Positions 14,178 to 34,743 of a stretch of DNA of 64,000 nt are shown here, one piece after another. Position 1 is the first letter of the stretch, and each line of letters opens with the position of its first letter. The notes under the pieces are model-generated. The model was not told the DNA's origin. It was given only the letters and a program-made list of their open reading frames with translations, and did no database searches. A program made the position numbers and the translations under genes. Source of the DNA: Candidatus Sulfopaludibacter sp. SbA3 (GTDB lineage: Bacteria > Acidobacteriota > Terriglobia > Bryobacterales > Bryobacteraceae); NCBI GenBank assembly GCA_945890485.1, contig CAMDCN010000008.1, positions 62,001-126,000 on the forward strand. Direction: 5' to 3'.

Positions 14178-14184
14178 GTAGATT

Positions 14185-14190
14185 CTCCTT
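14185..14190 (-). promoter_or_regulatory. Ribosome binding site that selects a GTG start
   Basis: AAGGAG on the minus strand lies 7 bases before GTG 14177 and sets the start of the beta-helix/malectin gene downstream of an in-frame ATG at 14216. Confidence 0.65.
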
Positions 14191-14412
14191 GGTGGTGGAT
14201 GGTTGAAAGTGGTCAACTGGGAAACGCGAATACAGATGTAGTCGAGTTAGTGGAAAGGTACGGCGAGTGATTGCGAGGTGTTGATACTAGTAGTGAATCC
14301 CGGCGTGCGGATTCGAACAATTGGGGAATGACATTAACTTAGCGGGCGGCGAGCCTTAGGGGCGGGAAGTGAGTACGAAGTGATTACAGCGAGGTTCGGA
14401 AGTAAGTGGGGA

Positions 14413-17336: not shown

Positions 17337-17492
17337 TGAATGCCTGTTACGTAAATTTTGTCGAACAACGGTAGTCGATTTTTCTTGCATTCTCTCTTGA
17401 GAACGCCTACCATTGGAACTAAATCTAAACGTGGATCCGCGTATCTGTCAACAGGTTTTGGCCTGGGAATGGCACGGCTCTACGTGTATACG

Positions 17493-17516
17493 CTCATAAA
17501 ATAGTACTTTTACGAG
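17493..17516. promoter_or_regulatory. Palindromic operator-like site upstream of the PEP-CTERM gene
   Basis: CTCATAAAA and TTTTACGAG form 9-base inverted arms with one mismatch around TAGTAC. In addition GTACTTTT recurs at 17504 and 17526, exactly 22 bases apart (about two helical turns). The site lies about 80-100 bases before the PEP-CTERM start in the divergent intergenic region. Binding by a regulator is inferred only. Confidence 0.3.
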
Positions 17517-17597
17517 CGCCTTCTGGTACTTTTCTCCTTTGTTATCTTGTATTTGCGGGTGCCATGTGGTATAGCCTCTGTATGAGGTATTTTTCTG

Positions 17598-18269
17598 ATG
17601 TTTACCCGCACACTGCTGCCGTTGGCTCTCCTTTGGGGCTTGCCGGCCTTTGCCATTCCTCTCTACCAAAACGATTTTGAGTCGCTGGATCTGACCGGTT
17701 GGTCCTCCGGCGAGATCTTCCTGGCTCCCAACGGGTCCACCCGCTTCCTCGGTTTGTTTGACCGGAATGATTCCACCACCTTCACCCTCGGGGGGCTCAT
17801 CACCGGCGAAACCATCAATTTCCAGTTCGACCTCTACATCAATAGAAGCTGGGACGGGAACACCTCCGCTTTCGGCCCTGATATTTTCACCGTGGAGGTT
17901 GAGGGTGGCCCGATTCTCTTACAGACGACGTTTAGCAATACCGAACTGCCGGGTTTCGAGCAATCCTTCCCGGATCCCTGGAATCCCAGTGCCCCTGCGG
18001 CTAATGCACCTCGAACGGGTGCGCTCGCCACAAACACCTTGGGTTTCATCACGGAAGGCGACACCACCTACCGGCTGACGCTGCCCATCACTCCTACCTC
18101 GTCGAACCTCGTCCTGCGTTTCTCTGGTTTCAATCTTCAGGACTTCACTGATGAAAACTGGGGGATCGATAACGTAATCGTCACTTCAGCGGTACCTGAA
18201 CCCTCCACTGCCTTCCTCCTCCTCGGAGGTTTAGGCCTGTTGGCCTTCCGGCGCCACTCCCGGCGCTAG
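17598..18269 (+). CDS. PEP-CTERM sorting domain protein
   Basis: The 223-residue product has an N-terminal signal peptide (MFTRTLLPLALLWGLPAFA), a ~175-residue beta-rich middle part beginning YQNDFESLDLTGW, and a C-terminal VPEPSTAFLLLGGLGLLAF segment followed by a basic tail RRHSRR. That tripartite tail is the PEP-CTERM signal recognised by exosortase, which removes it and releases or anchors the protein at the cell surface. Exosortase systems are normally linked to exopolysaccharide loci, which fits the neighbouring gene cluster, but no exosortase gene is in this window. The function of the middle part is unknown. Confidence 0.9.
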   Translation: MFTRTLLPLALLWGLPAFAIPLYQNDFESLDLTGWSSGEIFLAPNGSTRFLGLFDRNDSTTFTLGGLITGETINFQFDLYINRSWDGNTSAFGPDIFTVEVEGGPILLQTTFSNTELPGFEQSFPDPWNPSAPAANAPRTGALATNTLGFITEGDTTYRLTLPITPTSSNLVLRFSGFNLQDFTDENWGIDNVIVTSAVPEPSTAFLLLGGLGLLAFRRHSRR

Positions 18270-18356
18270 ACCCTCAGAACGCGGTCGCCATCCTCCGGCG
18301 GCCGCTCTATTTCTCCTCCCACAAAACCAAATTCACTCGGAAGCAAAGGAATCCCT

Positions 18357-20210
18357 ATGTGCGGAATCGTTGGCTACATCGGACATCAGAGAACCGTGCC
18401 CATTCTCCTGGACGGTCTGCGGAAGCTTGAATATCGCGGCTATGATTCCGCGGGTATCGCGGTCATCGGCCAGGACGGTAACTTGTCTGTGCGCCGTGCA
18501 TCCGGCAAGCTCTGCAATCTTGAGGAGGCGGTCCGCCGCTCCCCGATCGAAGGCAGCTACGGCATCGGACATACCCGATGGGCCACTCATGGCCGGCCGA
18601 CGGAGGTCAATGCCCACCCTCACGCGGGACCTGCCCGCGACGTCGTTCTGGTCCACAACGGGATTGTCGAAAACTATCTTTCCCTCCGCCGCGAGTTACA
18701 GGCCGAAGGCCACAAATTCGTTACGGAGACAGATACAGAAATCGTCGCCCACTTAGTCGAAAAATATCTGCGGGGTAACCTTGAAGAAGCCGTCCGTCAG
18801 GCTGTCAAACGCCTCAGCGGCGTGTTCGCTCTCGCCGTCCTGGCTCGTTCCGATCCTGGCAAAATCGTAGCTGCCCGCTCCGGTCCCCCCGTGGTCATCG
18901 GAGTAGGTAAGGAGGAGTTTCTCGTCGCCTCCGATGTGCCCGCCATTCTTACCCACACCCGCGACATGTTCTTCCTTCGCGATGGCGACATGGCCGTGCT
19001 CACCGCGCAGGCGGTCACTATCTCCGACTTTCAGGGCGCCGCCGTCGCCTGGAAGCCGACACGGATCTCCTGGGATCCCGCGATGGCCGAAAAGGGTGGC
19101 TACAAACACTTCATGCTCAAGGAGATCTTTGAGCAGCCCCAAGCCGTCCGGGATACCTTCCTCGGTCGAATTTCGCCCCGTTCCGGCGAATTGCACCTGG
19201 ATGAGATCGGTCTATCCGCAGATCAAATCCGCTCCTGCCGCCAGATCCGTATCGTCGCTTGTGGCACGAGTTGGCACGCGGCCCTCACCGGAAAGATCAT
19301 GATCGAGAAGTTGGCCCGTATTCCCGTCGAAGTCGACTACGGGAGCGAGTTCCGCTATCGCGATCCCATTATCGATGAAAATACGCTCACGGTCGTGGTC
19401 TCCCAATCCGGCGAAACTGCCGATACCCTGGCCGCCCTCCGCGAAGCCCGCCAGCGGGGCGCGCTCACTCTCGCCATTTGCAACGTAGCTGGCTCCATGA
19501 TCACGCGGGAGGCCGCCGGCAGTTTGCTCACACACGCTGGACCCGAAATCGGCGTCGCCTCCACCAAGGCCTTCACCTCCCAGGTAACCGCCCTCTTCCT
19601 GCTAAGCCTCCACCTCGCCCAACTCCAGGGCCGCCTCACGGAGGCGCAAACCCATCATCTCGTCACCGAACTCGGCCGCCTGCCCGCCAAGCTGCAGCAG
19701 GTGCTTTCCACCTCCGCGCAATGCGAGGCACTCGCCAAAACCCTTTTCCGTGCGACTGATTTCCTCTATCTCGGCCGCGGCATTCATTTCCCCATCGCCC
19801 TCGAGGGTGCGCTGAAGCTGAAGGAAATCAGCTACATCCACGCCGAAGGCTACCCGGCCGGCGAGATGAAACACGGCCCCAACGCCCTGATCGACGAGAC
19901 TCTCCCTGTGGTCGTCCTTGCTGCGTATGACCCCACCGACGACGCCTCCCGCCTCCGCTATGAAAAGACGCTCTCCAACATGCAGGAAGTAAAGGCCCGG
20001 GAGGGAATTGTTATCGCTCTTTGTAATGAAGGGGACGCGGACGTCCGCCAACTGGCGACGCATTGCATCGAAGTGCCCTCTTCCATCGAACTGTTGCTGC
20101 CCATTCTGGAAATGGTTCCCCTGCAGCTACTCGCCTATCATATTGCGGTTCGTCTTGGCTGCGACGTCGACCAACCACGCAACCTTGCTAAATCCGTTAC
20201 CGTCGAGTAA
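18357..20210 (+). CDS. glmS: Glutamine--fructose-6-phosphate aminotransferase (isomerizing)
   Basis: The 617-residue product is full length for GlmS, which makes glucosamine-6-phosphate, the entry to UDP-GlcNAc for peptidoglycan and surface glycans. It begins MCGIVGYIG, so Cys2 is the N-terminal nucleophile of the glutaminase domain (about 1-240, with [13 protein letters not shown] and HNGIVENY). Two SIS sugar-isomerase domains follow, with [16 protein letters not shown] and the later [17 protein letters not shown]. The C-terminus LAKSVTVE is the usual ending. The 87-base leader is too short for a glmS ribozyme. Confidence 0.97.
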
Positions 20211-20254
20211 CCACGCGCCGGTAACCAGCCTGGTGACGAGCGAACGCGGGCCGA

Positions 20255-21097
20255 TCACAATCTGAGCCGGAGTTTCACCAGAATGGGCGCTTCCGGTTTC
20301 ACCGCCACCCGGTACACCGTTTGTGGCGCCGGGTCCTCCTGAGTCAGTGCGCGCGTCCGCCCTGTTGCTGCCACTTGTTCCGCCCTCGTCCATGTCTGTC
20401 CCGCGCCTCCGGTCAGTTCAAACACGCTGGGTTTGGTGGTCTCCCATTTCTTCTCCCAAGCGGCCACCTGCGCCTCACTCAGCCGCAGCGCCTTGGGGCC
20501 TAGCTCCAGATCTGGCAGCGGCGCTTTCGTCAGTAGTAGCGTCAACTCCTCGCCGGTCTGGTCTGTCCGGCTACGGCGAAGGGAGAAGTAGTTCGGTTGA
20601 TCGTCCTGGCCGGGTATGTCGATCAGGCGCCCTGGCGAAATGGCGTTGTTCCCTTCGTGCGTCCGCGTTGTCGGGAAGATGAGGTAGGGCACGCCACGTT
20701 CGCCATTCGCGTACTGCTCCCGATCAACCACGTACAGATAGCCAGGTTCCGGCGACTCAATCGACAGCCGCACCTTATCGCCCGGCCTCAACCGGCCCGT
20801 TGACGAGATTCGCTCCGGAATCCATTCCTCGGTCTTCGATTCCTCCTGCACCAGGATCCGGGCTGCGGCCGAATCTCCGGCCACTGCTGGGCGCAACCGC
20901 CAGATGGTGACTCCCACCTGCCGTCCCCCCGTGGGACGAGGGCCAACGGTCGCCACGGGCTGATACTTCGGCTTGGGAGACGCGGCTGCCGTCGCTGCCG
21001 GACGCGCCTGCAGTACCTCCTCGGGAACGATTCCGCGGGTCGGAGACTGTCCCCATCCCGGCTGGCAGACCAACAAAAAACAAAGCCATCGTTTCAT
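20255..21097 (-). CDS. Secreted DUF4384-type protein
   Basis: The product is 280 residues from ATG 21097, chosen because GGAGGAG lies 8 bases upstream. It has a short signal peptide (MKRWLCFLLVCQPGWGQ), a Pro-rich stretch, then a beta-rich domain with LRPGDKVRLSIESPEPGYLYVVDREQYANG, PYLIFPT and a later TLLLTKAPLP. This order (GD.v.l.i.s...GYlYvv......LiFP) matches DUF4384. A similar domain forms the outer part of the kinase at 26317. It is the last gene of the ECF-kinase-CHAT run, 27 bases after the CHAT gene. DUF4384 proteins often accompany caspase-like proteases; no enzymatic role is known to me. Confidence 0.75.
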   Translation of the reverse strand: MKRWLCFLLVCQPGWGQSPTRGIVPEEVLQARPAATAAASPKPKYQPVATVGPRPTGGRQVGVTIWRLRPAVAGDSAAARILVQEESKTEEWIPERISSTGRLRPGDKVRLSIESPEPGYLYVVDREQYANGERGVPYLIFPTTRTHEGNNAISPGRLIDIPGQDDQPNYFSLRRSRTDQTGEELTLLLTKAPLPDLELGPKALRLSEAQVAAWEKKWETTKPSVFELTGGAGQTWTRAEQVAATGRTRALTQEDPAPQTVYRVAVKPEAPILVKLRLRL

Positions 21098-21105
21098 GGA
21101 CATCA

Positions 21106-21112
21106 CTCCTCC
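21106..21112 (-). promoter_or_regulatory. Ribosome binding site of the DUF4384 gene
   Basis: GGAGGAG on the minus strand, 8 bases before ATG 21097; it excludes the earlier in-frame ATGs at 21118 and 21103. Confidence 0.65.
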
Positions 21113-21124
21113 CATCATCCGGAT

Positions 21125-24103
21125 TCATCGCCAATCGCCCTGCTGAACGAACGCCGCCCAGAAGTACGGCGCGGCCCATTGCTTCTGCTTCCGCATCGCC
21201 AACTGCGCCTGCCGCAGAGCCGCCGCGGGCTGCAGATGCTGTTTCAACATCTGGCGGTACATCTGAACCATTAAGCTCGCTGTCGCCTGGTCGTTCACAT
21301 TCCAAAGACTCACCACGACGCGCCGGGCGCCCGCATTCAGGAACGCTCGCGGCAACCCCACCAGGCCTTCTCCGCGCACCTCCTGCCCCAAGCCCGTCTG
21401 GCACGCGCTGAGCACCACAAGGTCGGCGCGGAACGTCAGATCGTAGATGTCGTTCACGCGCAGAAAGCCGTCCTCGGCCTCGCCCTGCTCGTTACGAAAC
21501 GAGAGCAACAAAGCCGAGAGCCCGGGGCGCTCTGGGTCGATGTAGCCGTGCGTGGCGAAGTGCACATAGCGGTACTCGGCCAGGGATGGCGCCAGCGCCG
21601 CGGCCCGGCTGGCCCTTGCGCCAAGGGCGAACATGCTTTGCCCTTTCGGGACCAGTTTCCCGATTTGTTCGGCCTCCCGCCGCGTGTAGGGCAGTTGCGG
21701 AATCGTCGCCACGGCTATGGGACCACCGGACAAATGTTCCAGCATCCGCGTCGGCGCGGGGGCGCCGGTGAACACCGGATCGGCGAAAATGGCTAGGGAT
21801 CGTGTTGGCTCCCGCCGCACCCGGCCTTGCTCCCGCAACAACGCCAGAGTGGAGGCGGAAGGCAGGCTGATGGTCTCCATGGTCACCACCAAGGGATCTT
21901 CGACACCGGGCCGTGGCAGCATTGCGAACGGCACCCGCTGCAAGCCGCCATCCGCCACCACCACCAGGCGACTCCCGCACAGAACCTCCCTGGCCGGTGC
22001 CAGAATGGAATCGCTCAGCGCCTTGGCTGCTTCGGCGGTTGCGGCCGCATGCCGGGTGGGCAGAGCTTGCAGCAGAGCCTTGGTCTGGGCCTCCAAGATG
22101 GCGCGGCCCGGCAATGTGAAACTAGCAAAGCCGCTCCGGGTCACCGCCCACACGTAACTATTCTGCTCTCCGAGGGCGTATTCCAGCAGCACCGTGCCCG
22201 AGTCGAGTAACTCGGCCTGCACGCGCTCGATGGTCATCGGAGCCGGCTGCGTGACGGTGGCATATCTGGGGCTAGCCTTCCGGATGGACTCCTCCAAACT
22301 CCGTCGCTCGCGCTCCAGTTCCCGAATCTGAGCGAGCAACGGCTGCGCTTCCGGTCGGCCGTACACGGGCAAGAGCCGGGCCCCGAGCGAGTTTAGGTGT
22401 TCGCTCAGCTCCCGTTCCTTCGTTAGTAGCTCTTGGGCCGCGTCCATTCGAATGCCCGCGCCCGACTCCGTCAACATGTCCAGCAGCCCTCGCGCCCGCG
22501 CTCTCTCCGACATGGTGAATGCCGCCCCCTGCTCGCCCATGCGCATCAACAGCCCGATAGCGAATTCGTAGTCGCGCTGCCGTTCCGCAAGATAGAGCGT
22601 GCGAAGCTCCTGAACGGCTGCCTCGCGTCGAATTGCCTCCGCCAAAGCAAGAGACTTTTCGATCGCTGCCCGTGCTTGCGCCAACTGGCCTAGCGCAGCC
22701 TGCACTCGGGCCAAGGTTGCCGCGGCGCGCGCCTCGCCTGCGCGGTCTCCAATCTCCTGGAATTCCATCAGCGCCCTTTGCGCCCATGGCAGTGCCTGTC
22801 CTGCTTCGCCCTGATCGAGTTTGACAACGGCCAGCAACTCCCTCAGCAGGGCTCCCTGCCGAAGCTCCTGGATCTCTTGCGCCAACGATAACCCTTTCGC
22901 GATTACATCCTCCGCTTCGCGGAATCGGCCCACTCGGCGCAAGGCCTCTCCGTGGTTTCGGCTGGACCTCAACAACGACAACTTATCCCCGGCCGCCAGG
23001 TCGAGCGCCTCGGACCGGGCGATGTGGAGAAGCGCTTCCGTCGGTTGATTTAGCAGCAGCCGGGCGTAGCCCAGCGCTCCTTCTGTATCGGCTTCGCCCC
23101 GCTTATCGCCCACCGCTTTCCTCGCCGCCAAGGCACTGCTTAGGAGCGACTGCGCCTCCGCGATGTCGCCCAGCCCCAGGTGCGCCACCGCAAGATTATT
23201 CAACAGCAGTCCCTCTCGCCGGCGGTCTCCGGCTGCACGAATAAGCGGCAAACCCGATTGATAGTTCGACAACGCTGCCTGCCAATTTCCCAGGTTTCCT
23301 TCGAGGATGCCGAGGTTGTTCAGCACGAGTCCCTCGCCTGCCCGGTCGCCATTCGCCCGGTGCAGCGCCAAGGCCTGCTGATAGAACTCGCGCGCTTTCG
23401 TCGAGTCACCGAGCACCTCCCACATGCCCCCTTCAAAGTTCCTGATCGTCGCCAGCCGTCGATTGTCTCCGAGGACGGCAAACAGTTGCCCGGCCCGGGT
23501 CAGACTTTCGAGCGCCGGTCGAAACTGAGCTCCTGCCGCCCGCACGCTGCCGAAACCGTGGTGGATGATCGCCTGATAGTAGCGATCCCCCCTGCTGACA
23601 AAGTAGGGCAGGGCGGCGCTGTACTCCGTCAGAGCGGTGGATCTCGCTGCCGCCGTCCGAGTCCTCCGGGCTAACTCGCCTTTCTCGAAGTGGCCAAACG
23701 CCGCCGCTCGCGCTTGCTCCTCCGGTCCCGCCGGGCCCCATTTTACTACCCGGATCCGGCAGGAGCCGCTCCCATTGGTCTTCAGCTCCAAACGGTACTC
23801 GCCTGCCACCGGAGCAACATACACGATCGTTTCCGGGCCCCAAGCCCCATTGATGGCGTCGGCGGTGAACACGGCCCGGCCCTGTCCATCCTGCAACGTT
23901 GCGACCACGTCTGTCCCGGCTTGCATGACGACGATCTCCAGGCCGTCACCGGCGGCCAGTGTTCCCCGCAGAAGCACAGGGGCACTCCGGTTCACCTGGC
24001 GTTCCGCCTCCCATCCGGCGCGCAGCGGTTCTTCCTGCCCGTAGGTCAGGCCCGCCGTGAGCACTCCGCAGAGGGTCGAGAATCGCCAGGTGTACCGTCC
24101 CAT
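21125..24103 (-). CDS. Secreted TPR-CHAT caspase-like protease
   Basis: The 992-residue protein starts with a likely signal peptide (FSTLCGVLTAGLTYGQ). A beta domain of about 110 residues follows (RLELKTNGSG), then tetratricopeptide repeats from about residue 200 to 510 (for example LVLNNLGILEGNLGNWQAAL), a helical segment, and a C-terminal CHAT domain from about 650. The caspase-type dyad is visible: His852 in HFATHG and Cys901 in VLSACQTGLG. The ending (GLPRAFLNAGARRVVVSLW, then a helical tail) is typical of CHAT. CHAT domains are clan CD cysteine peptidases related to separases and caspases. The preceding gene stops 4 bases upstream. The signal peptide suggests action outside the cytoplasm. 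Confidence 0.88.
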   Translation of the reverse strand: MGRYTWRFSTLCGVLTAGLTYGQEEPLRAGWEAERQVNRSAPVLLRGTLAAGDGLEIVVMQAGTDVVATLQDGQGRAVFTADAINGAWGPETIVYVAPVAGEYRLELKTNGSGSCRIRVVKWGPAGPEEQARAAAFGHFEKGELARRTRTAAARSTALTEYSAALPYFVSRGDRYYQAIIHHGFGSVRAAGAQFRPALESLTRAGQLFAVLGDNRRLATIRNFEGGMWEVLGDSTKAREFYQQALALHRANGDRAGEGLVLNNLGILEGNLGNWQAALSNYQSGLPLIRAAGDRRREGLLLNNLAVAHLGLGDIAEAQSLLSSALAARKAVGDKRGEADTEGALGYARLLLNQPTEALLHIARSEALDLAAGDKLSLLRSSRNHGEALRRVGRFREAEDVIAKGLSLAQEIQELRQGALLRELLAVVKLDQGEAGQALPWAQRALMEFQEIGDRAGEARAAATLARVQAALGQLAQARAAIEKSLALAEAIRREAAVQELRTLYLAERQRDYEFAIGLLMRMGEQGAAFTMSERARARGLLDMLTESGAGIRMDAAQELLTKERELSEHLNSLGARLLPVYGRPEAQPLLAQIRELERERRSLEESIRKASPRYATVTQPAPMTIERVQAELLDSGTVLLEYALGEQNSYVWAVTRSGFASFTLPGRAILEAQTKALLQALPTRHAAATAEAAKALSDSILAPAREVLCGSRLVVVADGGLQRVPFAMLPRPGVEDPLVVTMETISLPSASTLALLREQGRVRREPTRSLAIFADPVFTGAPAPTRMLEHLSGGPIAVATIPQLPYTRREAEQIGKLVPKGQSMFALGARASRAAALAPSLAEYRYVHFATHGYIDPERPGLSALLLSFRNEQGEAEDGFLRVNDIYDLTFRADLVVLSACQTGLGQEVRGEGLVGLPRAFLNAGARRVVVSLWNVNDQATASLMVQMYRQMLKQHLQPAAALRQAQLAMRKQKQWAAPYFWAAFVQQGDWR

Positions 24104-24107
24104 TGCC

Positions 24108-24866
24108 CTACACCTCGGCCAGGGGCCACGTCGCCTGCGCCACCTCGCCTTCCTCGATGGGGCCGCGAGCGGATGCCTCCCAATCGTCCTCGTCGCGCGG
24201 CCCGCCGCTCAGGCTGGTGGCCACGCCCTCGTAGCCTCCCGTCACCGACGCATTCCCGGGCGAAGCGTCGATGCTGAAGAGCGCCGGGAAGCCACTGTAG
24301 CTTTTGTTGTTAAAGTTCCAGTGGAGTCCGGTTGCTGTGACGTCCACCGGGATTGGCGTCCCGTTCCCCTGCGGAGTGAATTGCACGCCGGAGCTGCCGC
24401 TTGCTGGCAGAGTTAGGGTACCGATCGGCGTGTTGCCTTCGGTGACGGTCAGCGTGGGGCCGAACTCGTATGCGATGGGGCCCGCCAAGCCGGACACGAC
24501 GAAAGGCACCGTGTCGATCGTCAGCCCAGTGCTGAAAGCATAGAGCCGCGTCTCCTGGTTGGGCCCCGAAACGAGGAGTACGGTAATGCCGTCAAACACC
24601 CAGTGCTGATCGGACTGGCCATTCAAGCTCACCGTCACGCTGAAGCCGGCAATCTGGCCGACGCGGTTTCGCTGCGACGAATAGCTGACTTGTTGCGAAC
24701 CGAAGGCGAGGTTCGTAAGCCGGACCCCCACCAGGTTGTTTCCGTTTGTGTCCACATCCAAAAAGAGACTGCCGAGGTAGCGGACACCTTGGCTCACTGG
24801 CCGCCCTTGACCTCTGGGCGGCGTCACGGTGAGTTCAAATTGAACTCTGGGAAATGCTAAAGACAT
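24108..24866 (-). CDS. Single-unit WEASARG-domain protein (unknown function)
   Basis: I do not recognise this 252-residue protein. It is a single copy of the domain that occurs twice in the upstream gene: it opens with PRVQFELTVTPPRGQGRPVS, contains SDQHWVFDGIT and TIDTVPFVVSGL, runs through HWNFNNKSYSGFPALFSID, and ends with an acidic stretch and WEASARG (residues 229-235), followed by a 17-residue acidic/hydrophobic tail. Composition suggests an all-beta fold. There is no signal peptide and no membrane segment. Its ribosome site AGGAGAA overlaps the stop of the upstream gene, and it ends 4 bases before the CHAT protease, so the three are translationally linked. A role as protease substrate or partner is inference. 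Confidence 0.75.
   Translation of the reverse strand: MSLAFPRVQFELTVTPPRGQGRPVSQGVRYLGSLFLDVDTNGNNLVGVRLTNLAFGSQQVSYSSQRNRVGQIAGFSVTVSLNGQSDQHWVFDGITVLLVSGPNQETRLYAFSTGLTIDTVPFVVSGLAGPIAYEFGPTLTVTEGNTPIGTLTLPASGSSGVQFTPQGNGTPIPVDVTATGLHWNFNNKSYSGFPALFSIDASPGNASVTGGYEGVATSLSGGPRDEDDWEASARGPIEEGEVAQATWPLAEV
24162..24860 (-). repeat. WEASARG-domain copy 3
   Basis: Opens LAFPRVQFELTVTPPRGQGR and ends WEASARG (codons at 24162-24182); forms nearly the whole single-unit protein. Confidence 0.7.
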
Positions 24867-24876
24867 AATGGTTCTC

Positions 24877-26295
24877 CTATAAATACCGGGTCTCTAAAAG
24901 CGGTTCGGGACCGCGTGCGGAAGCTTCCCAATCGTCATCGTCCTCGACGATCTGTTCGGTTGAACCAAGGAAGCCGATGGCTGGCTCCACTCCCTTTCTT
25001 GAGATCACGACGTCGAGAAAGAACGGGAATCCGGTATACACCTCGGGCGGATCTCCCCAGGAAATCGATTCTTCCCGCGCGGAAACCGGCAGCTTGGTGC
25101 TGCTTCCCGTGTAAACGAAATAGCCGCCCCTGGCGTTTTGGATCTTCAGCATGCCGATCTCTCTGCCACCGTGGATGACGGCAAATGTTCCGTTGAACGG
25201 TTTCGCGGGAGCAGGAAGGGCGGTCAGGTTGTACTCTTGCCCATTGATGGTCAGCGAGTAAGAAACCACATAGGTTTCGCCGCGCCACCGGAAGATCGTC
25301 AAACCGGCGAACTCCCACTCCGCCCCGTCGACTTGCACCTTGAACGGCCCCACCACGCCGTAATCGGGGCGCGTCGACCCATAGGTAGCCGGCGCGGTAA
25401 CGAAACTGCCGGAGGTGCTTTGCAGTGTTACGGTGGGAACCCCGTTGGGAGAGGCGAATGCGATGCTGCCCCAAAGGTTCACGCCGCTACTGACGGAAAC
25501 GGTATCACTCGGCGTGGGCGAAACCAACAAGCGGAACTGGCTCCACGGAAAGGGAAGGCGGGCCGGCTCCTGCGGGGAGGCTCCGATCTCGATTTCTGTA
25601 ATCGTTCCACGTGCGGACGCTTCCCATTCTTCTACATCGTTAGGGATCCCAGTGGAGAGCCCCAGGTAGCCCCCGCTGACCGCTATATTCCCCGGCGAAG
25701 GATCTAAGTCAAATATGGCAGGAAAGCCTGTATAGGTGCGGTTATCGAATACCCATTGGATGCCTGCCTGGGTAGGTGTTGCGGCGATCGGTGGGCGGTT
25801 GCCGAGCGGGACGAAGGCGACGCCTGACGTCCCGATAAGCGGCAAATGCAGTGTGCCAATCGGAATGCCCTTTTCGGTCACCGTCAACCGGAAATCGAAG
25901 CCCGATTCAACGGGGCTGCTGACTCCCGAAAGCACAAAGGGCACGCCGTCGATGGTCAGCGAGGAGCTGAAGGCAAGCAGCCGAAAACGGAAGTAGAGAA
26001 GCGTGATTCCGTCGAATGCCCAATGCTGGTCCGGTTGGCCTGCCTTTCTGACCGTCAGGCTAAAACCAGCAATTTCTCCCACGAAGAGGCGCGTCGACGA
26101 GTAGCTGATTGTTGCGCTGCCCGATAAGCCCGTGTCGAGGTCCACCTGAAGCGAGGTCGCTCCGGACCTGTCTGTTTTAAAGGTCAGTCGTCCGAGGAAA
26201 GGAATCCCGTCGCTGACGGGACGGCCCTGCTGCCGCGGTGGCGATATTGACATGCGCAGTTCCGCGCTTGGCTTGGGGTACGGCAATGAAGGCAT
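24877..26295 (-). CDS. Two-unit WEASARG-domain protein (unknown function)
   Basis: The product is 472 residues from ATG 26295. That start has GAGGAG 9 bases upstream and gives an N-terminus (MPSLPYPKPSAELRMSI) that aligns with the downstream single-unit protein; a GTG at 26316 abutting the kinase stop is the alternative. It holds two head-to-tail copies of a ~230-residue beta-rich domain. Unit 1 ends in VEEWEASARG (W at residue 224) and unit 2 ends in DDDDWEASARG (W at residue 456), with a 10-residue tail. Unit 1 resembles the downstream protein more than it resembles unit 2. No signal peptide, membrane helix or known catalytic motif is seen. I do not recognise the family. Confidence 0.75.
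   Translation of the reverse strand: MPSLPYPKPSAELRMSISPPRQQGRPVSDGIPFLGRLTFKTDRSGATSLQVDLDTGLSGSATISYSSTRLFVGEIAGFSLTVRKAGQPDQHWAFDGITLLYFRFRLLAFSSSLTIDGVPFVLSGVSSPVESGFDFRLTVTEKGIPIGTLHLPLIGTSGVAFVPLGNRPPIAATPTQAGIQWVFDNRTYTGFPAIFDLDPSPGNIAVSGGYLGLSTGIPNDVEEWEASARGTITEIEIGASPQEPARLPFPWSQFRLLVSPTPSDTVSVSSGVNLWGSIAFASPNGVPTVTLQSTSGSFVTAPATYGSTRPDYGVVGPFKVQVDGAEWEFAGLTIFRWRGETYVVSYSLTINGQEYNLTALPAPAKPFNGTFAVIHGGREIGMLKIQNARGGYFVYTGSSTKLPVSAREESISWGDPPEVYTGFPFFLDVVISRKGVEPAIGFLGSTEQIVEDDDDWEASARGPEPLLETRYL
24910..25557 (-). repeat. WEASARG-domain copy 2 (divergent)
   Basis: Opens LPFPWSQFRLLVSP and ends WEASARG (codons at 24910-24930). The middle part has drifted (WEFAGLT, SLTINGQEYNL, YTGFPFFLDV), but the ending motif is unchanged. 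Confidence 0.65.
25606..26286 (-). repeat. WEASARG-domain copy 1
   Basis: Opens LPYPKPSAELRMSISPPRQQ and ends WEASARG (codons at 25606-25626). Shares DQHW-FDGIT, SLTIDGVPFVLSG and YTGFPAIFDLDPSPGN with the copy at 24162. Confidence 0.7.
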
Positions 26296-26304
26296 AACGA
26301 CGGT

Positions 26305-26310
26305 CTCCTC
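26305..26310 (-). promoter_or_regulatory. Ribosome binding site of the two-unit WEASARG gene
   Basis: GAGGAG on the minus strand, 9 bases before ATG 26295. It supports that ATG over the GTG at 26316. Confidence 0.5.
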
Positions 26311-26316
26311 GCTCAC

Positions 26317-27933
26317 CTACTGGTGGCGCAGTTGTAGTAGTTGGCCCGCCATGCCGGGCAGGCCGGCTGGCAATTGTTGGAACAGTTGGCGAACCCTGGT
26401 TTCGCGTGTACCTTCCGCGCGTCCCGGTCCCGCAAGAAAGTCTTGCGGCCTTTCGGCCCAAACCACCCAGATCCGTTCAATTCCCGGATTCTGATCAAAT
26501 ACGAACCAACCTGTTATCGTGGCCGTTACCGGCTCGGCGGCCTGACCGGAAAGCGGATAGACGATCGACACTTCCGCCGGCGTCTCGGTAACGGCGTAGA
26601 AGTATCCCGGCCGGGCCGCACTCAGCCGCAAGCGAAACTTCCAGCCCGCTTGAAACGTATCGGTCGCCGCTGCCCGGTAAGGGAGCAATGCTGGATCCTT
26701 CTGCGCTTCAATCTCGAAGCGTAGCGCGGGCTGGCTACTGGCGGTCACCCAATGGGAAACTCCATAGGTGAGCGCCCCGGCCGCGACGGCCGATCCGCCC
26801 GCTAACAACCACCTCCGACTCACGCGCGCCGGTGGCGTCACTATCTCGCCAAGCCGTTCCGCAACCTCCTCCATGGAGCCGAGTCGAGCATTCCGGTCCT
26901 TCACCAAACATCGTTCTATCAGGTCGCCCAGCGGCCGAGGCGCTGCCGAGTTGATCGTTTCGACACGCGGCGGATGCTGGTTCATTACCTGGGAGAGAGT
27001 CGTCATCGCGTTCTTGCCCTGGAAAGGACGCCGTTTCGCCGTCATCTCGTAGAGAATCACCCCGAGCGCAAAGATATCCGCACGGCGATCGGCCGCCTGC
27101 CCGATGGCCACCTCCGGCGCCATATAGGTTGGCGTGCCTAGAATCAGATTCTGCTCCGTCGACTGTTCTCCACTGGTCGAAGTTACCTTCGCGATGCCAA
27201 AGTCCAGAACCTTGACGGATCCTCCTTCGGTGATCATAATGTTGGCCGGCTTTAAGTCCCGATGGACGATTCCCGCGGCGTGAGCGCTCGACAGCGCCAA
27301 TGCCGTTTGCCGAGCGATCTCCAGGAGTTCGGCTAGCGGCGGCGGATCCTGTTTCAAAAGCTCCGCGAGGGTTACCCCCCGAATGTATTCCATGGCAATG
27401 TAGTCAATCTCGCCTTCGTGACCGAACTCATAAATCGTGATGATATTCGGATGCGTAAGCGCGGAAGCCGCGCGGGCCTCGCGGGCAAACCGGCGCCTCT
27501 CGTCGTCCGACTCATGGCGCGCATTCAGCACCTTCAGCGCCGCCAAGCGGTCCAACCGTCCATCCCGCGCCAGATAGACGATGCCCATGCCTCCGGCGCC
27601 GATGCGAGCCACGATTTCGTAGTGGCCGAGGTGATGGCCCGCCGGCAACTCCTGGGAATGAGTGGCCGTGTCGGTGGCTCCGGCTGGGGACCTATCAATA
27701 AACGTGGCCGTTGCATCCACGCGTTCCAGCAACGAGTTCACCTCATCGAGGATTTCCCGGTCGCTGCCGGCCGCCGCGCGAACGTAGGCGGACCGCTGGA
27801 TAGCGGGGAGTTCCAGAGCGGCTTCCAAAATCTCGCGAACCCGCTTCCATTGCCGCGCATCAGGCGCCGGACCCATAGAGCCAGATAGTAACAGGAACTG
27901 TTGTGGTGCGGAAGTCATAGCCTGAATTCTCAT
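26317..27933 (-). CDS. Transmembrane Ser/Thr protein kinase with DUF4384-like outer domain
   Basis: The protein is 538 residues from ATG 27933; ATG 27876 (MGPAPDARQWKRV) is an equally possible start. A ~90-residue helical N-terminus is followed by a complete eukaryotic-type kinase domain (about 104-360): the Gly loop IGAGGMGIVY, Lys134, HRDLKPAN with Asp226, and DFG at 244-246. A single membrane helix lies near 375-395 (WLLAGGSAVAAGALTYGV). The ~140 outer residues contain WKFRLRLSAARPGYFYAVTE and SIVYPLSG, a DUF4384-like arrangement also found in the last gene of the run. It sits 60 bases after the ECF sigma gene, and its stop abuts a GTG upstream of the next gene. A sensor kinase that controls the sigma factor is the simplest reading. 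Confidence 0.9.
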   Translation of the reverse strand: MRIQAMTSAPQQFLLLSGSMGPAPDARQWKRVREILEAALELPAIQRSAYVRAAAGSDREILDEVNSLLERVDATATFIDRSPAGATDTATHSQELPAGHHLGHYEIVARIGAGGMGIVYLARDGRLDRLAALKVLNARHESDDERRRFAREARAASALTHPNIITIYEFGHEGEIDYIAMEYIRGVTLAELLKQDPPPLAELLEIARQTALALSSAHAAGIVHRDLKPANIMITEGGSVKVLDFGIAKVTSTSGEQSTEQNLILGTPTYMAPEVAIGQAADRRADIFALGVILYEMTAKRRPFQGKNAMTTLSQVMNQHPPRVETINSAAPRPLGDLIERCLVKDRNARLGSMEEVAERLGEIVTPPARVSRRWLLAGGSAVAAGALTYGVSHWVTASSQPALRFEIEAQKDPALLPYRAAATDTFQAGWKFRLRLSAARPGYFYAVTETPAEVSIVYPLSGQAAEPVTATITGWFVFDQNPGIERIWVVWAERPQDFLAGPGRAEGTRETRVRQLFQQLPAGLPGMAGQLLQLRHQ

Positions 27934-27993
27934 CGCTTAGGGCCTGCTTACCCTGCTTAGCGTGAAGACTTCCGCAACCTGGCCAATGCGAAA

Positions 27994-28557
27994 CTATTTT
28001 TTTTCGCGGCTCATTTCGCGCAGTAGCCACAGACGGGCCGACGCCCAATACCGGCGCACCGTGCGGGGCGCAATCCCGAGCGCGCAGGCGATCTCTTCGG
28101 TCGACAGGCCACCGAAAAATCGCATCTCCACTATCTGACTCTGCACGGAGTCCAGCTTCGCCAAATCCGCCAGAGCGTCGTCAAGCGCGATCAATTCCAT
28201 GGCTCGGGGAGCCCCCGGCGCGAGTTCTTCATTCAGTTCCATCATGGCCGCGCCGGCGCCGCGCTTTTCGGCATGCTTCTGGCGGGCGTGGTCCACCAGA
28301 ATCCGGCGGATCATCTGGCTGCTTACCGCGTAGAAGTGTGCGCGGTCCTGCCACTGCACTTCCGGCCCGCGGATAAGCCGCAGAAAGGCTTCGTTCACCA
28401 ACGCCGTGCTCTGCAGTGTGTGGTCGTCTCTTTCCCGTGCTAACTGCCGGTGCGCCAACCGGCGCAACTCCGTGTAGACCATGGGCGCCAACGCCTCCAG
28501 CGCGGAGGCGTCCCCGCCGCTCCACCGCCGCAGCAGTAGGGTCACATCCTCGCTCAC
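27994..28557 (-). CDS. ECF RNA polymerase sigma factor (TIGR02999-type)
   Basis: The 187-residue protein has sigma region 2 (SALVYTELRRLAHRQLARE-like start, then DDHTLQSTALVNEAFLRL and DRAHFYAVSSQMIRRILVDH) and region 4 with a helix-turn-helix (RFFGGLSTEEIACALGIAPR, TVRRYWASARLWL). Length and motifs match the TIGR02999 group common in Acidobacteria and Planctomycetes. Its GTG start overlaps the fucosidase stop (GTGA), so translation is coupled. No anti-sigma gene is next to it; a Ser/Thr kinase follows instead. Where most ECF factors have an acidic DAED stretch in region 2.2, this one has QSTA (S50, T51). The gene ends with a run of eight A before the stop. Confidence 0.92.
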   Translation of the reverse strand: MSEDVTLLLRRWSGGDASALEALAPMVYTELRRLAHRQLARERDDHTLQSTALVNEAFLRLIRGPEVQWQDRAHFYAVSSQMIRRILVDHARQKHAEKRGAGAAMMELNEELAPGAPRAMELIALDDALADLAKLDSVQSQIVEMRFFGGLSTEEIACALGIAPRTVRRYWASARLWLLREMSREKK

Positions 28558-30164
28558 TGTTTCTCGATCCGGCGTTCCGCGCCATAAATCGTCAGCAGCG
28601 GATGCTTAACCCATGCCCGGAATTCGTACACCCCGTTCGGACTCAATCCGGTTACGGGAAGTGAGAACTCTCCGGCCGCGGTCATCATCCGAGTAGGGCC
28701 CGGCTGCCACGGGATGGACCGGTCACTGGCATCCAGTCCCACGATGCTCCGGTAGTCGAAGCCTACCTCCAACCGTTCGACCTTCCCCATGTCGACCAGC
28801 CTTCCGGTTAACGTGGCGGCCGTGCCGCTCCAACGGCTGCCGCTTGTCTCCAGCCGGGGCGGGATGAACGTAGGCTTGGCGTTCGTGATCTTAAGCACGA
28901 TCGGGTTCGGCCACTTGCTGTTATCTTGCAGGCGGTGAGTGAACATCGCCCGGATGTGCAGCCCGTCCGGCTCCTGCCGGAAGGTTGGCGCGGGGTTCAC
29001 CTCCGGCCGATACTCCAGCACGCGCCCGTTCTGCCCCAGCACGGTTACCTTCGTCTCCGGTGTCGCAGCGACGCTCTTCAAGACGAAGTCCCGCCATTGG
29101 CCGCGCACCCACGGGGTGTCCTGCTTCACGATGGCGTACAAAGTATCCTCGTTTTTCGCTTTGGTGAACCAAATATTCTGTTCATTGGTGATGACCCACG
29201 GCCGGACGCCGTAGATGCTCTCCTGGTTCACTTGCATCCAAAGCGCCAGCTCCCGCAGCCGCTCTTCCTGCTCGATCGGTAGTTCTCCATCGGGCTTCGG
29301 GCCGACGTTGAGCAGCAGGTTGCCCCCCTTGGCTCGCGTCTCCACGAGAATGTCGATCACCCGTCCCCCGGACTTGTAGCTTTCGTTCTGCGGTTGATAC
29401 TGCCACGCCGTCCCCATCGTGAAGCATGCCTCCCACGCGCCATCGATGGGCACGCCAGGGACATACAGCTCCGGCGTCTGAATGGCGCCGCGAGTGACTA
29501 CGGTATTGGGCTGCAACTGCCAGGCGAGTTCGCGCAACTGGTGGGGCTCGCCATCGAGAAACACGTAGTCGATGGGGCCATACCTGGTCATCAGTTCGCG
29601 CATCTGTGCCAAATCGAGATCCATCAGTCCCGGGTTGTTCCGTGGCTGCACCGCCGGGATGTTGCGCTGGATATCGATCTTGTTCTTCCGGAGCCACCAG
29701 AAGTCGTCTGGCGAAAAGTACAGGCCCGGCCGAATCCCCTGGGCCGAGAACGCATCCAGCACCTCTTTCGTGATGTCCCGTTTGAAGGGAGTTTGCATCA
29801 CGCCGAAGTCCGTCGTCTTCGTATTCCACATGGCGAAGCCGGAGTGGTGTTTCGCTGTGAAGACGACATAGCGAATGCCCGCCAGTTTGGCCAGCGCGGC
29901 CCAATCCTGCGGATAGAACTTGCGCGGATTGAAGGTCTTCGGCAGGTCGTTGTAGAACCGGTCGGTATAGGCGGCATCCGCTCCGGCCAGGGAATGCGAG
30001 ATGACTACGCCGGTTTGCGAATCCACGCTCCAATGAATGAACAGGCCGAATCCGAGATCGCGAAAGGTCTCCAGGCGGTCCGCCTTGTTCAGTGACCCCG
30101 GTGGGAGGTCCGGCTGCGCCCAAGCCCCAAATGCCAGCAAACCGAATAGGAAGATGAGTCTCAT
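28554..30164 (-). CDS. Secreted alpha-L-fucosidase, GH29
   Basis: The 536-residue product has a signal peptide (MRLIFLFGLLAFGAWAQ) and a GH29 catalytic barrel. Visible motifs are GFGLFIHWS near the start, YVVFTAKHHSGFAMW, GLYFSPDDFWW, and YVFLDGEP, where the Asp before Gly fits the nucleophile position of GH29 (W/F-x-D-G). The GGNLLLNVGPKPDGELP block and the C-terminal beta-sandwich are also family traits. It should release alpha-L-fucose or related residues from glycans outside the cytoplasm. It lies 6 bases after the PQQ-like propeller gene and overlaps the ECF sigma gene by 4 bases. Confidence 0.9.
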   Translation of the reverse strand: MRLIFLFGLLAFGAWAQPDLPPGSLNKADRLETFRDLGFGLFIHWSVDSQTGVVISHSLAGADAAYTDRFYNDLPKTFNPRKFYPQDWAALAKLAGIRYVVFTAKHHSGFAMWNTKTTDFGVMQTPFKRDITKEVLDAFSAQGIRPGLYFSPDDFWWLRKNKIDIQRNIPAVQPRNNPGLMDLDLAQMRELMTRYGPIDYVFLDGEPHQLRELAWQLQPNTVVTRGAIQTPELYVPGVPIDGAWEACFTMGTAWQYQPQNESYKSGGRVIDILVETRAKGGNLLLNVGPKPDGELPIEQEERLRELALWMQVNQESIYGVRPWVITNEQNIWFTKAKNEDTLYAIVKQDTPWVRGQWRDFVLKSVAATPETKVTVLGQNGRVLEYRPEVNPAPTFRQEPDGLHIRAMFTHRLQDNSKWPNPIVLKITNAKPTFIPPRLETSGSRWSGTAATLTGRLVDMGKVERLEVGFDYRSIVGLDASDRSIPWQPGPTRMMTAAGEFSLPVTGLSPNGVYEFRAWVKHPLLTIYGAERRIEKQ

Positions 30165-30170
30165 AAAGTC

Positions 30171-31385
30171 CTAGCTTTCGATGCGAAACAGATGCTGGTC
30201 GCCCCGCAGGTAAATGGCGCCGCCGGAGATGGCGAGCGAAGCCAGCGTGCGTTCGCCGATTTCGCTCTTGGCAACTTCCTGATAGGCGGTTCCTGGTGTA
30301 ATCACCGTGCATTCGCCCTCTTCGCTCAGGAAGTAAATCTTCCCCCCGGCAAAGACCGGCGACGCCGAATGGTTGCCGCCAATTCGCTGCTGCCACACCA
30401 GCTTTCCGGACTTGGCATCGAGACAAGTCGTGACCCCGTTGTCACTGACCATGTACAGCTCGTTGCCAACGACAATGGGCGAGGGCGTCAGCGGCACCGT
30501 ACGAGGGAACGACCAAGCCACCTGCGATTGAGTCACATTACCCTGGCCTCCCGGCCGCACTGCGAAGAGCACCGGCTGAAAGAACCCAGAGCAGATATAG
30601 ACCAACCCATGCGCGTACACCGGGCGGGGTACGTTCGAGAAGCCTTCGCCGTATTCGATGTACCAAAGTTCCTTGCCCGTCCGCGCGTTGTAGGCATAGG
30701 CGTGATGCGCTCCCGGGCTGATGACCTGCGGCTGCCCCTCGACGGAGATCACCAACGGCGTCGTGTACGCTTGGTTGCCCTTGCCTCGCGGCGTCTTCCA
30801 GCGGATCTTGCCGGTGGCCGCATCCAAAGCCACGACGAACTGCGCATCGAAGCCATCACAACTGATGATGAGCAGATCCTCAAACAGTGCCGGCGAGCCT
30901 CCCGGCCCGTGCTGCGGCTCATACTTCAATACCTGTTTCCAGACGATCTCCCCTTTCGTATTGAGGCACGCTGTGCCGTAGAAGCCGAAGTGCGCAAACA
31001 GGCGGTCGCCCTGCACGATTACGGTTGGCGACGCGAAGCTATTTTTTTTGTGAATGCCCGGGCCTACGTCCTTGACCCGAAAGACTTCTGTATCGAGCGT
31101 GATCTTGCCGGACCCGGTGTCAACTCCAAGCAGGCGCAGAGAGGCGTTCTTCTCGGTAGCCGTCGTGAGATAGAGGCGATCCCCCACGATAGCCGGGCTC
31201 GACCAGCCGGAGCCCGGAATGGGGACTTTCCAGCGGACGTTTTTCGTCTCGCTCCAGGAGGTGGGCAAGCCCTCCTCCGACGAATGCCCCTGGCCGCCGA
31301 GACCGCGGAATTGAGGCCAGTCTTCCGCCAGTAGGGGAGCCGATAAGAGTTGACCGATTAGGGTACGCCGTCGCATTCCTCCCAT
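30171..31385 (-). CDS. Secreted PQQ-like beta-propeller protein
   Basis: The 404-residue protein opens MGGMRRRTLIGQLLSAPLLAEDW, a short export signal with a Tat-like RRRTLIG. Then come WPQFRGLGGQGHSSEEGLPTSW and WKVPIPGSGWSSPAIVGDRLYLTTA, the standard opening of Planctomycete/Acidobacteria PQQ-like repeat proteins. Repeats with the pattern A.d..tGk..W..... recur (DAATGKIRWKTP, NARTGKELWYIE, DAKSGKLVWQQR), which indicates an eight-bladed propeller. No quinoprotein dehydrogenase residues are obvious, so a scaffold or binding role is more likely. The start may be ATG 31376; GGGAGGA lies too close to it. It is divergent from the radical SAM gene with almost no intergenic space. Confidence 0.8.
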   Translation of the reverse strand: MGGMRRRTLIGQLLSAPLLAEDWPQFRGLGGQGHSSEEGLPTSWSETKNVRWKVPIPGSGWSSPAIVGDRLYLTTATEKNASLRLLGVDTGSGKITLDTEVFRVKDVGPGIHKKNSFASPTVIVQGDRLFAHFGFYGTACLNTKGEIVWKQVLKYEPQHGPGGSPALFEDLLIISCDGFDAQFVVALDAATGKIRWKTPRGKGNQAYTTPLVISVEGQPQVISPGAHHAYAYNARTGKELWYIEYGEGFSNVPRPVYAHGLVYICSGFFQPVLFAVRPGGQGNVTQSQVAWSFPRTVPLTPSPIVVGNELYMVSDNGVTTCLDAKSGKLVWQQRIGGNHSASPVFAGGKIYFLSEEGECTVITPGTAYQEVAKSEIGERTLASLAISGGAIYLRGDQHLFRIES

Positions 31386-31405
31386 TGGATCACAGGGGCG
31401 CCGCT

Positions 31406-33763: not shown

Positions 33764-34202
33764 CTATGGCGATCTGACCCGCGTGATAGAGCGTATGCTG
33801 AATTACGCCGTGCAGCAGAAAATAGACGTCATAAGGTTTTCCGGGAACAGCCGCGTCGAGGTCCGCCTTTTGGATCGAGGTGAGTAGCGCCTCGCAGGCG
33901 GCCTGGAGCCGTTCGCGCGAGGCGGCCCACCCTTCCGCCGGGGGCCAATCGTCGTCGCCGAGTAGCAGCGCGGGGTCGCCGTGAAGGCGCCGGTTCGCCG
34001 CTTCCATCCACGCGGCGATATGAAGCGTCAACTCCTCGATTGTGTGATTGCCGCCAGGTGGACGGGAGGCAGCCTGCTCCGGCGTCACCCCGACGAGGAG
34101 TTCGAGAACGGCATCGCCATGCCATGCTTCTCCGTAGACCGCCCTCCGCAGTTGATCCGCGATTCGATAGTTTTCCCGCATCTTCCCACCATCGTAGTCC
34201 AT
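33747..34202 (-). CDS. DinB-like four-helix protein
   Basis: The 151-residue protein is all helical and has the DinB/YfiT pattern: an early helix with GEAWHG, a middle NHTIEELTLHIAAWMEAANR, and a C-terminal LHGVIQHTLYHAGQIAIVK. The three conserved His would bind a metal ion. Members of this superfamily are often thiol-dependent transferases or hydrolases, but the actual substrate is rarely known. The start may be ATG 34181 instead of 34202. It is convergent with the radical SAM gene and divergent from the small secreted protein gene. Confidence 0.8.
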   Translation of the reverse strand: MDYDGGKMRENYRIADQLRRAVYGEAWHGDAVLELLVGVTPEQAASRPPGGNHTIEELTLHIAAWMEAANRRLHGDPALLLGDDDWPPAEGWAASRERLQAACEALLTSIQKADLDAAVPGKPYDVYFLLHGVIQHTLYHAGQIAIVKRLV

Positions 34203-34278
34203 GGGCCTTGCGCTGCCGGCGGAACAGGCGTAGTCTACCTGCGGTCCTGTTTAGACCGATAGACAAGGAGAATGAAAA

Positions 34279-34728: not shown

Positions 34729-34743
34729 ATCACCCGGGGGCCG

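What the first reader, a model, noticed from the sequence alone, without database searches (positions are those of the whole stretch)
20255..28557. Candidate undescribed module: ECF sigma, transmembrane kinase, WEASARG proteins, secreted CHAT protease, DUF4384 protein
Six co-directional genes are linked by short gaps or abutting ends: ECF sigma factor, Ser/Thr kinase, two proteins of an unrecognised repeat domain, a TPR-CHAT caspase-like protease (His852/Cys901) and a DUF4384 protein. Seen: the order, spacing and motifs. Known: CHAT proteases and Ser/Thr kinases occur in bacterial regulated-protease and conflict systems, and kinase-controlled ECF factors exist. Inferred: an outside signal reaches the kinase, the sigma factor is switched on, and a protease plus its partner/substrate is made or activated. 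I do not recognise this exact set.
Basis: partly seen in the sequence, partly recalled or inferred. Interest (0 to 1): 0.82.

Follow-up and report, generated by a model that had tools for sequence, protein, structure and literature searches.

The report
Kinase-sigma-protease module, fast-changing middle gene
A conserved set of soil-bacterium genes links a membrane sensor kinase, a gene switch it probably turns on, an exported-looking caspase-like protease and a secreted-looking protein related to the sensor, with a very fast-changing protein between them; the set looks real, but its job is unproven.

Summary
The six genes are there as described, at the stated coordinates, and homologue surveys support a module. 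Its core is an ECF sigma factor, a membrane Ser/Thr kinase, a CHAT protease and a DUF4384 protein.

(1) The kinase's C-terminal, presumably extracytoplasmic, domain is a DUF4384 homologue. (2) The sigma factor has QSTA where ordinary ECF factors have acidic DxxD, the signature described for kinase-activated ECF43 factors; the threonine is kept in 15 of 17 related factors. (3) The WEASARG proteins fill a variable slot. In the family, WEASARG domains were found in 4 of 237 genomes, all 8 in this module. Elsewhere the slot holds orphan proteins that mostly keep W-x-A near the C-terminus (8 of 10 lineages; 0 of 47 ORFs upstream of other CHATs).

Most likely: envelope signalling by kinase-to-sigma activation plus an exported clan CD protease, with the slot protein as its diversifying partner or substrate. 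The kinase-sigma step rests on good homology. The partner step is speculative, because slot proteins mostly lack a visible export signal and CHAT has one. My library searches showed no description of this set.

The parts
27994..28557 (-). ECF sigma factor (TIGR02999/PF07638), 187 aa, GTG start; sigma2.2 acidic DxxD replaced by QSTA, Thr51 = predicted phospho-acceptor
   Evidence: motif alignment; ECF43 precedent
26317..27933 (-). Hanks-type Ser/Thr kinase (HRDLKPAN and DFG read by eye), hydrophobic stretch near residues 371-390, C-terminal DUF4384-like domain
   Evidence: DUF4384 homology (the window's own tail alone does not match PF14326)
24877..26316 (-). two-domain WEASARG protein (slot protein X); probable true start ATG 26295 (472 aa); W-x-A motif ends each domain; no visible signal peptide
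24108..24866 (-). one-domain WEASARG protein (second slot protein X, 52% identical to the first domain of its neighbour)
   Evidence: all-beta AF2 model
21125..24103 (-). exported-looking TPR-CHAT protease, 992 aa; His852 and Cys901 invariant in 10 aligned sequences
   Evidence: N-terminal hydropathy
20255..21118 (-). DUF4384 protein, 287 aa, signal-like N-terminus by eye; homologous to the kinase C-terminal domain
   Evidence: AF2 model
28554..30164 (-). alpha-L-fucosidase-family protein (PF01120) overlapping the ECF start by 4 bp; also next to the module in G001 and G006, not in G035 or G121: accessory neighbour, not core

Best explanation
It is an envelope signalling and proteolysis module. 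A membrane Ser/Thr kinase senses something outside through a DUF4384-type domain, probably together with the secreted DUF4384 protein of the same operon. It phosphorylates the ECF sigma factor on Thr51 of the QSTA motif; this supplies the negative charge that ordinary ECF factors carry in DxxD, so the factor binds RNA polymerase and drives its regulon, probably including this operon. The operon delivers an exported TPR-CHAT cysteine protease. The beta-rich slot protein (WEASARG here) is its diversifying partner, inhibitor or substrate. Shown by sequence: gene order and its conservation, catalytic residues, QSTA motif, kinase/DUF4384 homology, a variable slot with a frequent W-x-A element. Inferred: phosphorylation, membrane topology and export, DUF4384 partnership, autoregulation, and the whole role of the slot protein.
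For: The order recurs across genera and outside the class. Of 51 DUF4384 places tallied, 39 have a kinase nearby on the same strand (two of them partial; 37 with the DUF4384-like tail), 23 a CHAT match, 14 an ECF, 10 all three (contig ends lower the counts). Kinase C-termini against DUF4384 proteins: hhalign 97.3%, E 2.1e-11; 14 of 26 kinase tails match PF14326; CHAT, ECF and WEASARG profiles give nothing. The Thr is kept in 15 of 17 related ECFs; ECF43 factors EcfK and EcfP are phosphorylated there by Hanks-type kinases (PMC13147305, passages). CHAT His/Cys invariant in 10 sequences. C14 caspases stand between kinase and DUF4384 in three loci. X is the fastest-changing gene: G000 against G006 identity X 38%, CHAT 63%, kinase 67%, DUF4384 71%, ECF 74%.
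Against: CHAT looks exported and slot proteins mostly do not (crude hydropathy), so protease and slot protein may not meet. The slot is empty in G492, where the core is complete (53-bp gap between kinase and CHAT), so X is not essential. Many DUF4384-kinase pairs have neither CHAT nor ECF, and most CHAT genes are elsewhere: of 20 phylum CHAT loci fetched, 13 show no ECF, kinase or DUF4384 match in the stretch looked at. The Thr is missing in 2 of 17 ECFs, and phosphorylation of the equivalent Thr is not essential in EcfK (T51A still works). No expression or biochemical data.
Confidence: 0.5

Rival explanations
1. Craspase-like logic: the slot protein is a cytoplasmic inhibitor of the sigma factor (as Csx30 is of CASP-sigma), and CHAT cleaves it to release the sigma factor.
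For: TPR-CHAT, ECF sigma and a third protein sit together as in type III-E loci; Csx30 binds and inhibits an ECF-like factor and is cut by the TPR-CHAT protease Csx29 (PMC10028731, passages). Slot proteins look mostly cytoplasmic, like the sigma factor.
Against: The CHAT N-terminus is hydrophobic and export-like in 9 of 9 checked; the Csx29 model scores 13.5 bits against a cut-off of 300; no repeat array in 15-35 kb of the window; the QSTA motif points to kinase control instead.
Confidence: 0.15
2. Conflict or toxin-like module: slot proteins are polymorphic effectors or immunity partners, delivered or processed by CHAT, under diversifying selection.
For: Strong divergence, duplication (two X in G000, in G153 and in G106, where the order is X-CHAT-X-CHAT) and exchange of slot contents, with C70 papain-like peptidases among the genes between kinase and CHAT in G548 and G563.
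Against: No toxin or immunity family or fold recognised; PADLOC gives only kinase models, such as PD-T4-6, for the kinase and a TPR model for CHAT. No test of selection was made.
Confidence: 0.2
3. Loose neighbourhood: ECF-kinase pairs, kinase-DUF4384 pairs and CHAT genes are separately common in this phylum and sit together by weak selection.
For: The own genome has eight other CHAT loci, none with a DUF4384 match and one with a kinase match in the stretch fetched; 13 of 20 phylum CHAT loci show none of the partners; many DUF4384-kinase pairs lack CHAT.
Against: The same five-gene order recurs in several genera and outside the class; the kinase tail and the DUF4384 protein share a domain.
Confidence: 0.1

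Closest known systems
ECF43 sigma factor with Hanks-type kinase (EcfK/PknS of Xanthomonas citri, EcfP/PknT of Vibrio parahaemolyticus)
   Same: ECF gene beside a Ser/Thr kinase with a hydrophobic segment; sigma2.2 DxxD replaced by a QTTA-like motif with the threonine
   Different: Here the kinase tail is a DUF4384-like domain, and the operon goes on to a slot protein, a CHAT protease and a DUF4384 protein; EcfK controls a type VI secretion system (PMC13147305, abstract and passages)
Type III-E CRISPR Craspase (Csx29 TPR-CHAT, Csx30, CASP-sigma)
   Same: TPR-CHAT protease, ECF sigma and a third protein in one locus
   Different: No repeat array in 15-35 kb, Csx29 model far below cut-off, CHAT looks exported, a kinase is present
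Orthocaspases with an accessory DUF4384 domain (cyanobacteria)
   Same: A clan CD protease associated with DUF4384 (PMC7475262, passages); in three relatives a C14 caspase stands beside kinase and DUF4384
   Different: DUF4384 is a separate protein and a kinase domain here, not fused to the protease

Membership tests
Kinase-activated ECF sigma factor (ECF43-like mechanism) | ECF sigma encoded next to a Hanks-type kinase | tested here: met
   also in G001, G006, G035, G121, G470 and G492
Kinase-activated ECF sigma factor (ECF43-like mechanism) | acidic DxxD of sigma2.2 replaced, with a threonine at the phospho position (QTTA-like) | tested here: met
   QSTA here; Thr in 15 of 17 aligned ECFs; motif described in PMC13147305
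Kinase-activated ECF sigma factor (ECF43-like mechanism) | phylogenetic membership of group ECF43 | not tested
   only TIGR02999/PF07638 assigned
Kinase-activated ECF sigma factor (ECF43-like mechanism) | direct phosphorylation raises activity | not testable with these tools
   needs biochemistry
Type III-E Craspase | Csx29-type TPR-CHAT | tested here: not met
   CAS_csx29 model 13.5 bits, cut-off 300
Type III-E Craspase | CRISPR array nearby | tested here: not met
   no array among direct repeats in window 15000-35000; the rest of the genome was not scanned
Type III-E Craspase | Cas7-11/gRAMP effector | not tested
   no such model was searched in the genome; none among the ten window proteins scanned
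Catalytic CHAT (clan CD) protease | CHAT domain with His-Cys dyad | tested here: met
   PF12770 4.7e-68; H852 and C901 invariant in 10 sequences; activity not testable here
DUF4384 (PF14326) | match above the curated cut-off | tested here: met
   terminal gene: 27.7 bits, cut-off 27. The window's kinase tail alone does not match; its link is by profile comparison
NTPase-centred conflict systems (PMC8195603) | an NTPase of the STAND/AP-ATPase kind in the operon | tested here: not met
   none among the six proteins and four neighbours scanned; passages of the paper

The most novel reading that the evidence does not exclude
The slot protein is one hyper-diverging family of cargo beta-domains whose W-x-A element is the conserved handle. 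It is recognised, and perhaps cut, by the clan CD protease of the module, possibly serving as a C-terminal sorting tag that takes a protein without an N-terminal signal to the envelope, with the kinase-sigma pair controlling production.
Probability: 0.12. Interest if true: 0.85.

Novelty: new variant of a known kind. Interest (0 to 1): 0.6.

Why it matters
It ties two themes of bacterial regulation that are rarely joined, kinase-activated ECF sigma factors and caspase-like proteases, in one recurring operon of a common soil phylum. It gives DUF4384, a domain of unknown function, a testable role as a kinase sensor and secreted partner. The fast-changing middle gene offers a compact system for finding what a CHAT protease acts on.

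Tried and rejected
Rejected: WEASARG as an obligatory part (other X proteins fill the slot; the slot is empty in G492). WEASARG as a tag on unlinked proteins: a relaxed DNA pattern for W-[acidic or similar]-A-S-like gave 16 matches in the own genome against 8 for the reversed control, and the three spelling WEASARG are this locus (the other 13 were not looked at). The weak hit G035:C427 lies inside a frame that reads like an oxidoreductase (by eye) and was dropped; the profile search did not recover it. Plasmid spread: 12 plasmid records match the CHAT protein, all under 60% identity and all in cyanobacterial genera.

Led nowhere: Foldseek of the WEASARG model (pLDDT 79, pTM 0.74; the other four models have mean pLDDT 56-66) gave no E below 0.001 in PDB; the top hits were Phm7/CghA-like pericyclases at TM about 0.2, not a usable assignment. 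BFVD gave no E below 0.001 either, and PDB sequences no E below 0.009. Foldseek of the confident DUF4384 model (pLDDT 89, pTM 0.84) also gave no E below 0.001. WEASARG halves show no internal repeat. Promoter and terminator scan at chance.

Homology among X proteins is only suggestive. Single X against the WEASARG profile: best E 0.0017 (G106_X2), the other nine worse. A half-domain profile scored X above shuffles of the same X (combined p 3e-7; with G106_X2 added 3e-6), but shuffles keep only composition, G035 and G153_X2 do not stand out, and the W-x-A element may drive the result.

Motif caveats: W-x-A-[SG]-x-x-G was written down after seeing the WEASARG, G035 and G031 tails. Of the 7 lineages seen later (G106_X1, G106_X2, G121, G153, G185, G193, G470), 5 keep W-x-A (p 4e-5) and only 2 the exact motif (p 4e-4); G153 and G193 fail. 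Background and control ORFs are mechanical frames, not proven genes; in the control the longest upstream frame of 60 aa or more was taken for each of 47 CHAT genes, and CHAT genes without such a frame were left out. The G185 X has a run of N and an unsure start. The export statement is a hydropathy window plus reading by eye, no SignalP: 12 of 15 X at or below 1.16, G106_X1 1.52, G106_X2 1.56 and G035 2.26, against 1.59-2.68 for 9 CHAT, so G035 overlaps the CHAT range; DUF4384 was judged by eye only.

Limits of the surveys: genome searches score only a few best candidates per genome (3 for CHAT, 2, 6 to 11). The 11 module genomes are those whose CHAT domain scores 428 bits or more against the window's, the next locus having 379; G002 is partial and taken on synteny. 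The tally covers the loci fetched: seven DUF4384 matches (five phylum-level places, G037 and G003) were not in it, several rows lie at contig ends, and L230 counts a distant CHAT fragment. Of the 17 ECFs, three (L239, L240, L252) are on the strand opposite to the DUF4384 gene, and G492 (L202) keeps a Glu at the first motif position.
Full report
What is in the window. Pfam and NCBIfam give an ECF sigma of TIGR02999/PF07638, a PF00069 kinase, TPR plus CHAT (PF12770), and DUF4384 (PF14326, just above its cut-off); the two WEASARG proteins match nothing there, nor in PADLOC or PHROGs. The window's genome has 7.1 Mb in 35 contigs. A close relative, G001, is very probably the record titled MAG: Acidobacteria bacterium Ga0077553: contig LNFE01000123.1 and G001:C123 have the same length of 62004 bases.

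Is WEASARG tied to the module? With a profile of eight domains, 4 of 237 genomes of the family matched, with 8 domain matches in all, each in a module copy: G000 three, G001 two, G006 one, G002 two. But WEASARG is narrow: all four genomes are of one genus. An earlier single-sequence search found matches in 5 of 61 relatives, the fifth a weak hit inside an unrelated frame.

The slot. A CHAT profile was searched in 237 genomes of the family (104 had a match at 1e-60). The CHAT genes most like the window's are in 11 genomes: G000, G001, G002, G006, G031, G035, G106, G121, G153, G185, G193. The complete order ECF, kinase, X, CHAT, DUF4384 is seen in five: G000, G001, G006, G035, G121. G002, G031 and G185 are cut by contig ends. 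In G193 no ECF match was found in the stretch fetched. G106 has kinase-X-CHAT-X-CHAT-DUF4384 with the ECF last. In G153, X-X-CHAT stands apart from ECF-kinase-DUF4384 on another contig. An X frame lies directly upstream of CHAT in 12 of 12 of these CHAT genes that have upstream sequence; a thirteenth, in G185, begins at a contig end. The X proteins are 95 to 479 aa, have no Pfam or NCBIfam match above a cut-off, and outside the WEASARG group and the G153 pair share little detectable similarity. Outside the class, G470 has the full order with a 109-aa X frame that ends SWDASAGGQPGPHPKPQKKG, while G492 has ECF, kinase, CHAT and DUF4384 with no X. In G548 and G563 other genes fill the space, including proteins matching C70 papain-like peptidases.

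Results against a tight module. CHAT genes in general are not tied to these partners: of 20 phylum CHAT loci fetched, 13 show no ECF, kinase or DUF4384 match in the stretch looked at, and of the eight other CHAT loci of the own genome none shows DUF4384 and one a kinase.

The W-x-A element. Counting each X lineage once, 8 of 10 have W-x-A-[STGE] in the last 50 residues, against 31 of 1556 background frames, and against 0 of 47 frames upstream of other CHAT genes. The motif was chosen partly from the data; on the 7 lineages seen afterwards, 5 keep W-x-A (p 4e-5) and 2 the stricter form (p 4e-4). In the AlphaFold model of a WEASARG domain (mean pLDDT 79, pTM 0.74) the motif is the last beta strand, and in the two-domain protein it ends each domain. 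It could therefore be a conserved strand of one fast-diverging beta fold rather than a tag. Weak profile evidence favours distant homology.

The kinase tail. The last 190 residues of 26 kinases, compared with 39 DUF4384 proteins, give hhalign probability 97.3%, E 2.1e-11 over 95 columns, and 14 of the 26 match PF14326 directly, though the window's own does not. Comparisons with CHAT, ECF and WEASARG profiles give at most 1.3%. So the kinase carries, behind its hydrophobic segment, the domain that the operon also makes as a separate protein. Among 51 DUF4384 places tallied, 39 have a kinase nearby, 23 a CHAT match, 14 an ECF, 10 all three. The kinase-DUF4384 pair is thus the most persistent part. 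In three loci (L230, L234, L250) C14 caspases stand between the two. In the own phylum sample DUF4384 proteins of this kind were found in 18 of 396 genomes, in the order sample in 24 of 257.

The sigma factor. Where ordinary ECF factors have DxxD in sigma2.2, this one has QSTA, with Thr51. Of 17 related factors 15 keep the threonine; G121 (HSGE) and G153 (SSID) do not. Passages of PMC13147305 state that ECF43 factors typically lack the acidic residues, have a QTTA consensus whose threonine is phosphorylated, and are encoded with Hanks-type kinases. They also state that T51A alone leaves EcfK functional, a second site in the linker (T106) being able to replace it, so the threonine may not be the only switch. 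Works like ECF43: likely. Member of ECF43: not tested.

The protease. His852 and Cys901 are invariant in 10 aligned sequences. The N-termini of 9 CHAT proteins are hydrophobic like export signals, those of the X proteins mostly are not, with G035 an exception (a crude test). This separates the present system from Craspase, where Cas7-11 with the TPR-CHAT protease Csx29 cuts Csx30, an inhibitor of an ECF-like factor (PMC10028731, passages); the Csx29 model scores far below its cut-off and no repeat array lies in window 15000-35000. It also counts against the simple idea that CHAT cuts X.

Literature. DUF4384 occurs in 5 papers of the library, named as an accessory domain of cyanobacterial orthocaspases in the one read by passages (PMC7475262). 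Searches: DUF4384 with CHAT (2 papers, listing only); ECF sigma factor, threonine kinase, Acidobacteria and phosphorylation (none); CHAT, caspase, sigma factor, kinase and conflict systems (1, PMC8195603, passages); extracytoplasmic function sigma with classification, kinase, Planctomycetes and Acidobacteria (1, off the subject, listing only); TPR-CHAT, Csx30 and RpoE (6, listing; one read by passages, also found); ECF sigma with PknT and EcfP (1, passages); CHAT domain with protein kinase, operon, protease and Acidobacteria (none); Solibacter with sigma factor, protein kinase and ECF (1, PMC3174227, passages, which notes many Ser/Thr kinases and sigma-E homologues). None showed this set. Most subscription papers are not held, so this is absence in the library only.

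Verdict. A real, recurring arrangement, apparently undescribed in what I could search, built from known parts. The kinase-to-sigma step is a good inference; the role of the slot protein is open.

Noticed in passing
window 28554-31385: Fucosidase-family and PQQ-repeat genes run into the module on the same strand (4 bp overlap, 6 bp gap); the fucosidase keeps this place in G001 and G006.
   Followed up: partly
L057 3460-8029 and L051 6228-9972 (own genome): Other CHAT genes of the genome follow a small protein that may be a zinc-finger anti-sigma factor, one after an ORF that may be a sigma factor: perhaps a second sigma-CHAT layout (by eye).
   Followed up: no
L136 6077-11060 and L160 4490-9812 (reverse-complement coordinates): CHAT genes directly after a large kinase without a match to the DUF4384-like tail, a kinase-CHAT pair of another kind.
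   Followed up: no
L108 (G106): Tandem X-CHAT-X-CHAT unit with two different X proteins and the ECF gene at the end.
   Followed up: partly
L238 9790-10631 (G548): Two small ORFs that read like an antitoxin and a PIN-domain toxin sit between the second CHAT and DUF4384 (by eye).
   Followed up: no
L063, L064, L070, L071, L075 (same genus): A second, diverged DUF4384 family sits in a recurring neighbourhood with a protein of about 1900-2700 aa and one of about 690 aa.
   Followed up: no
window 7524-8909, 11289-14216, 14460-17390: Three proteins with similar N-terminal starts (PGDTIWLR seen in two) lie near what looks like a polysaccharide gene cluster (by eye).
   Followed up: no
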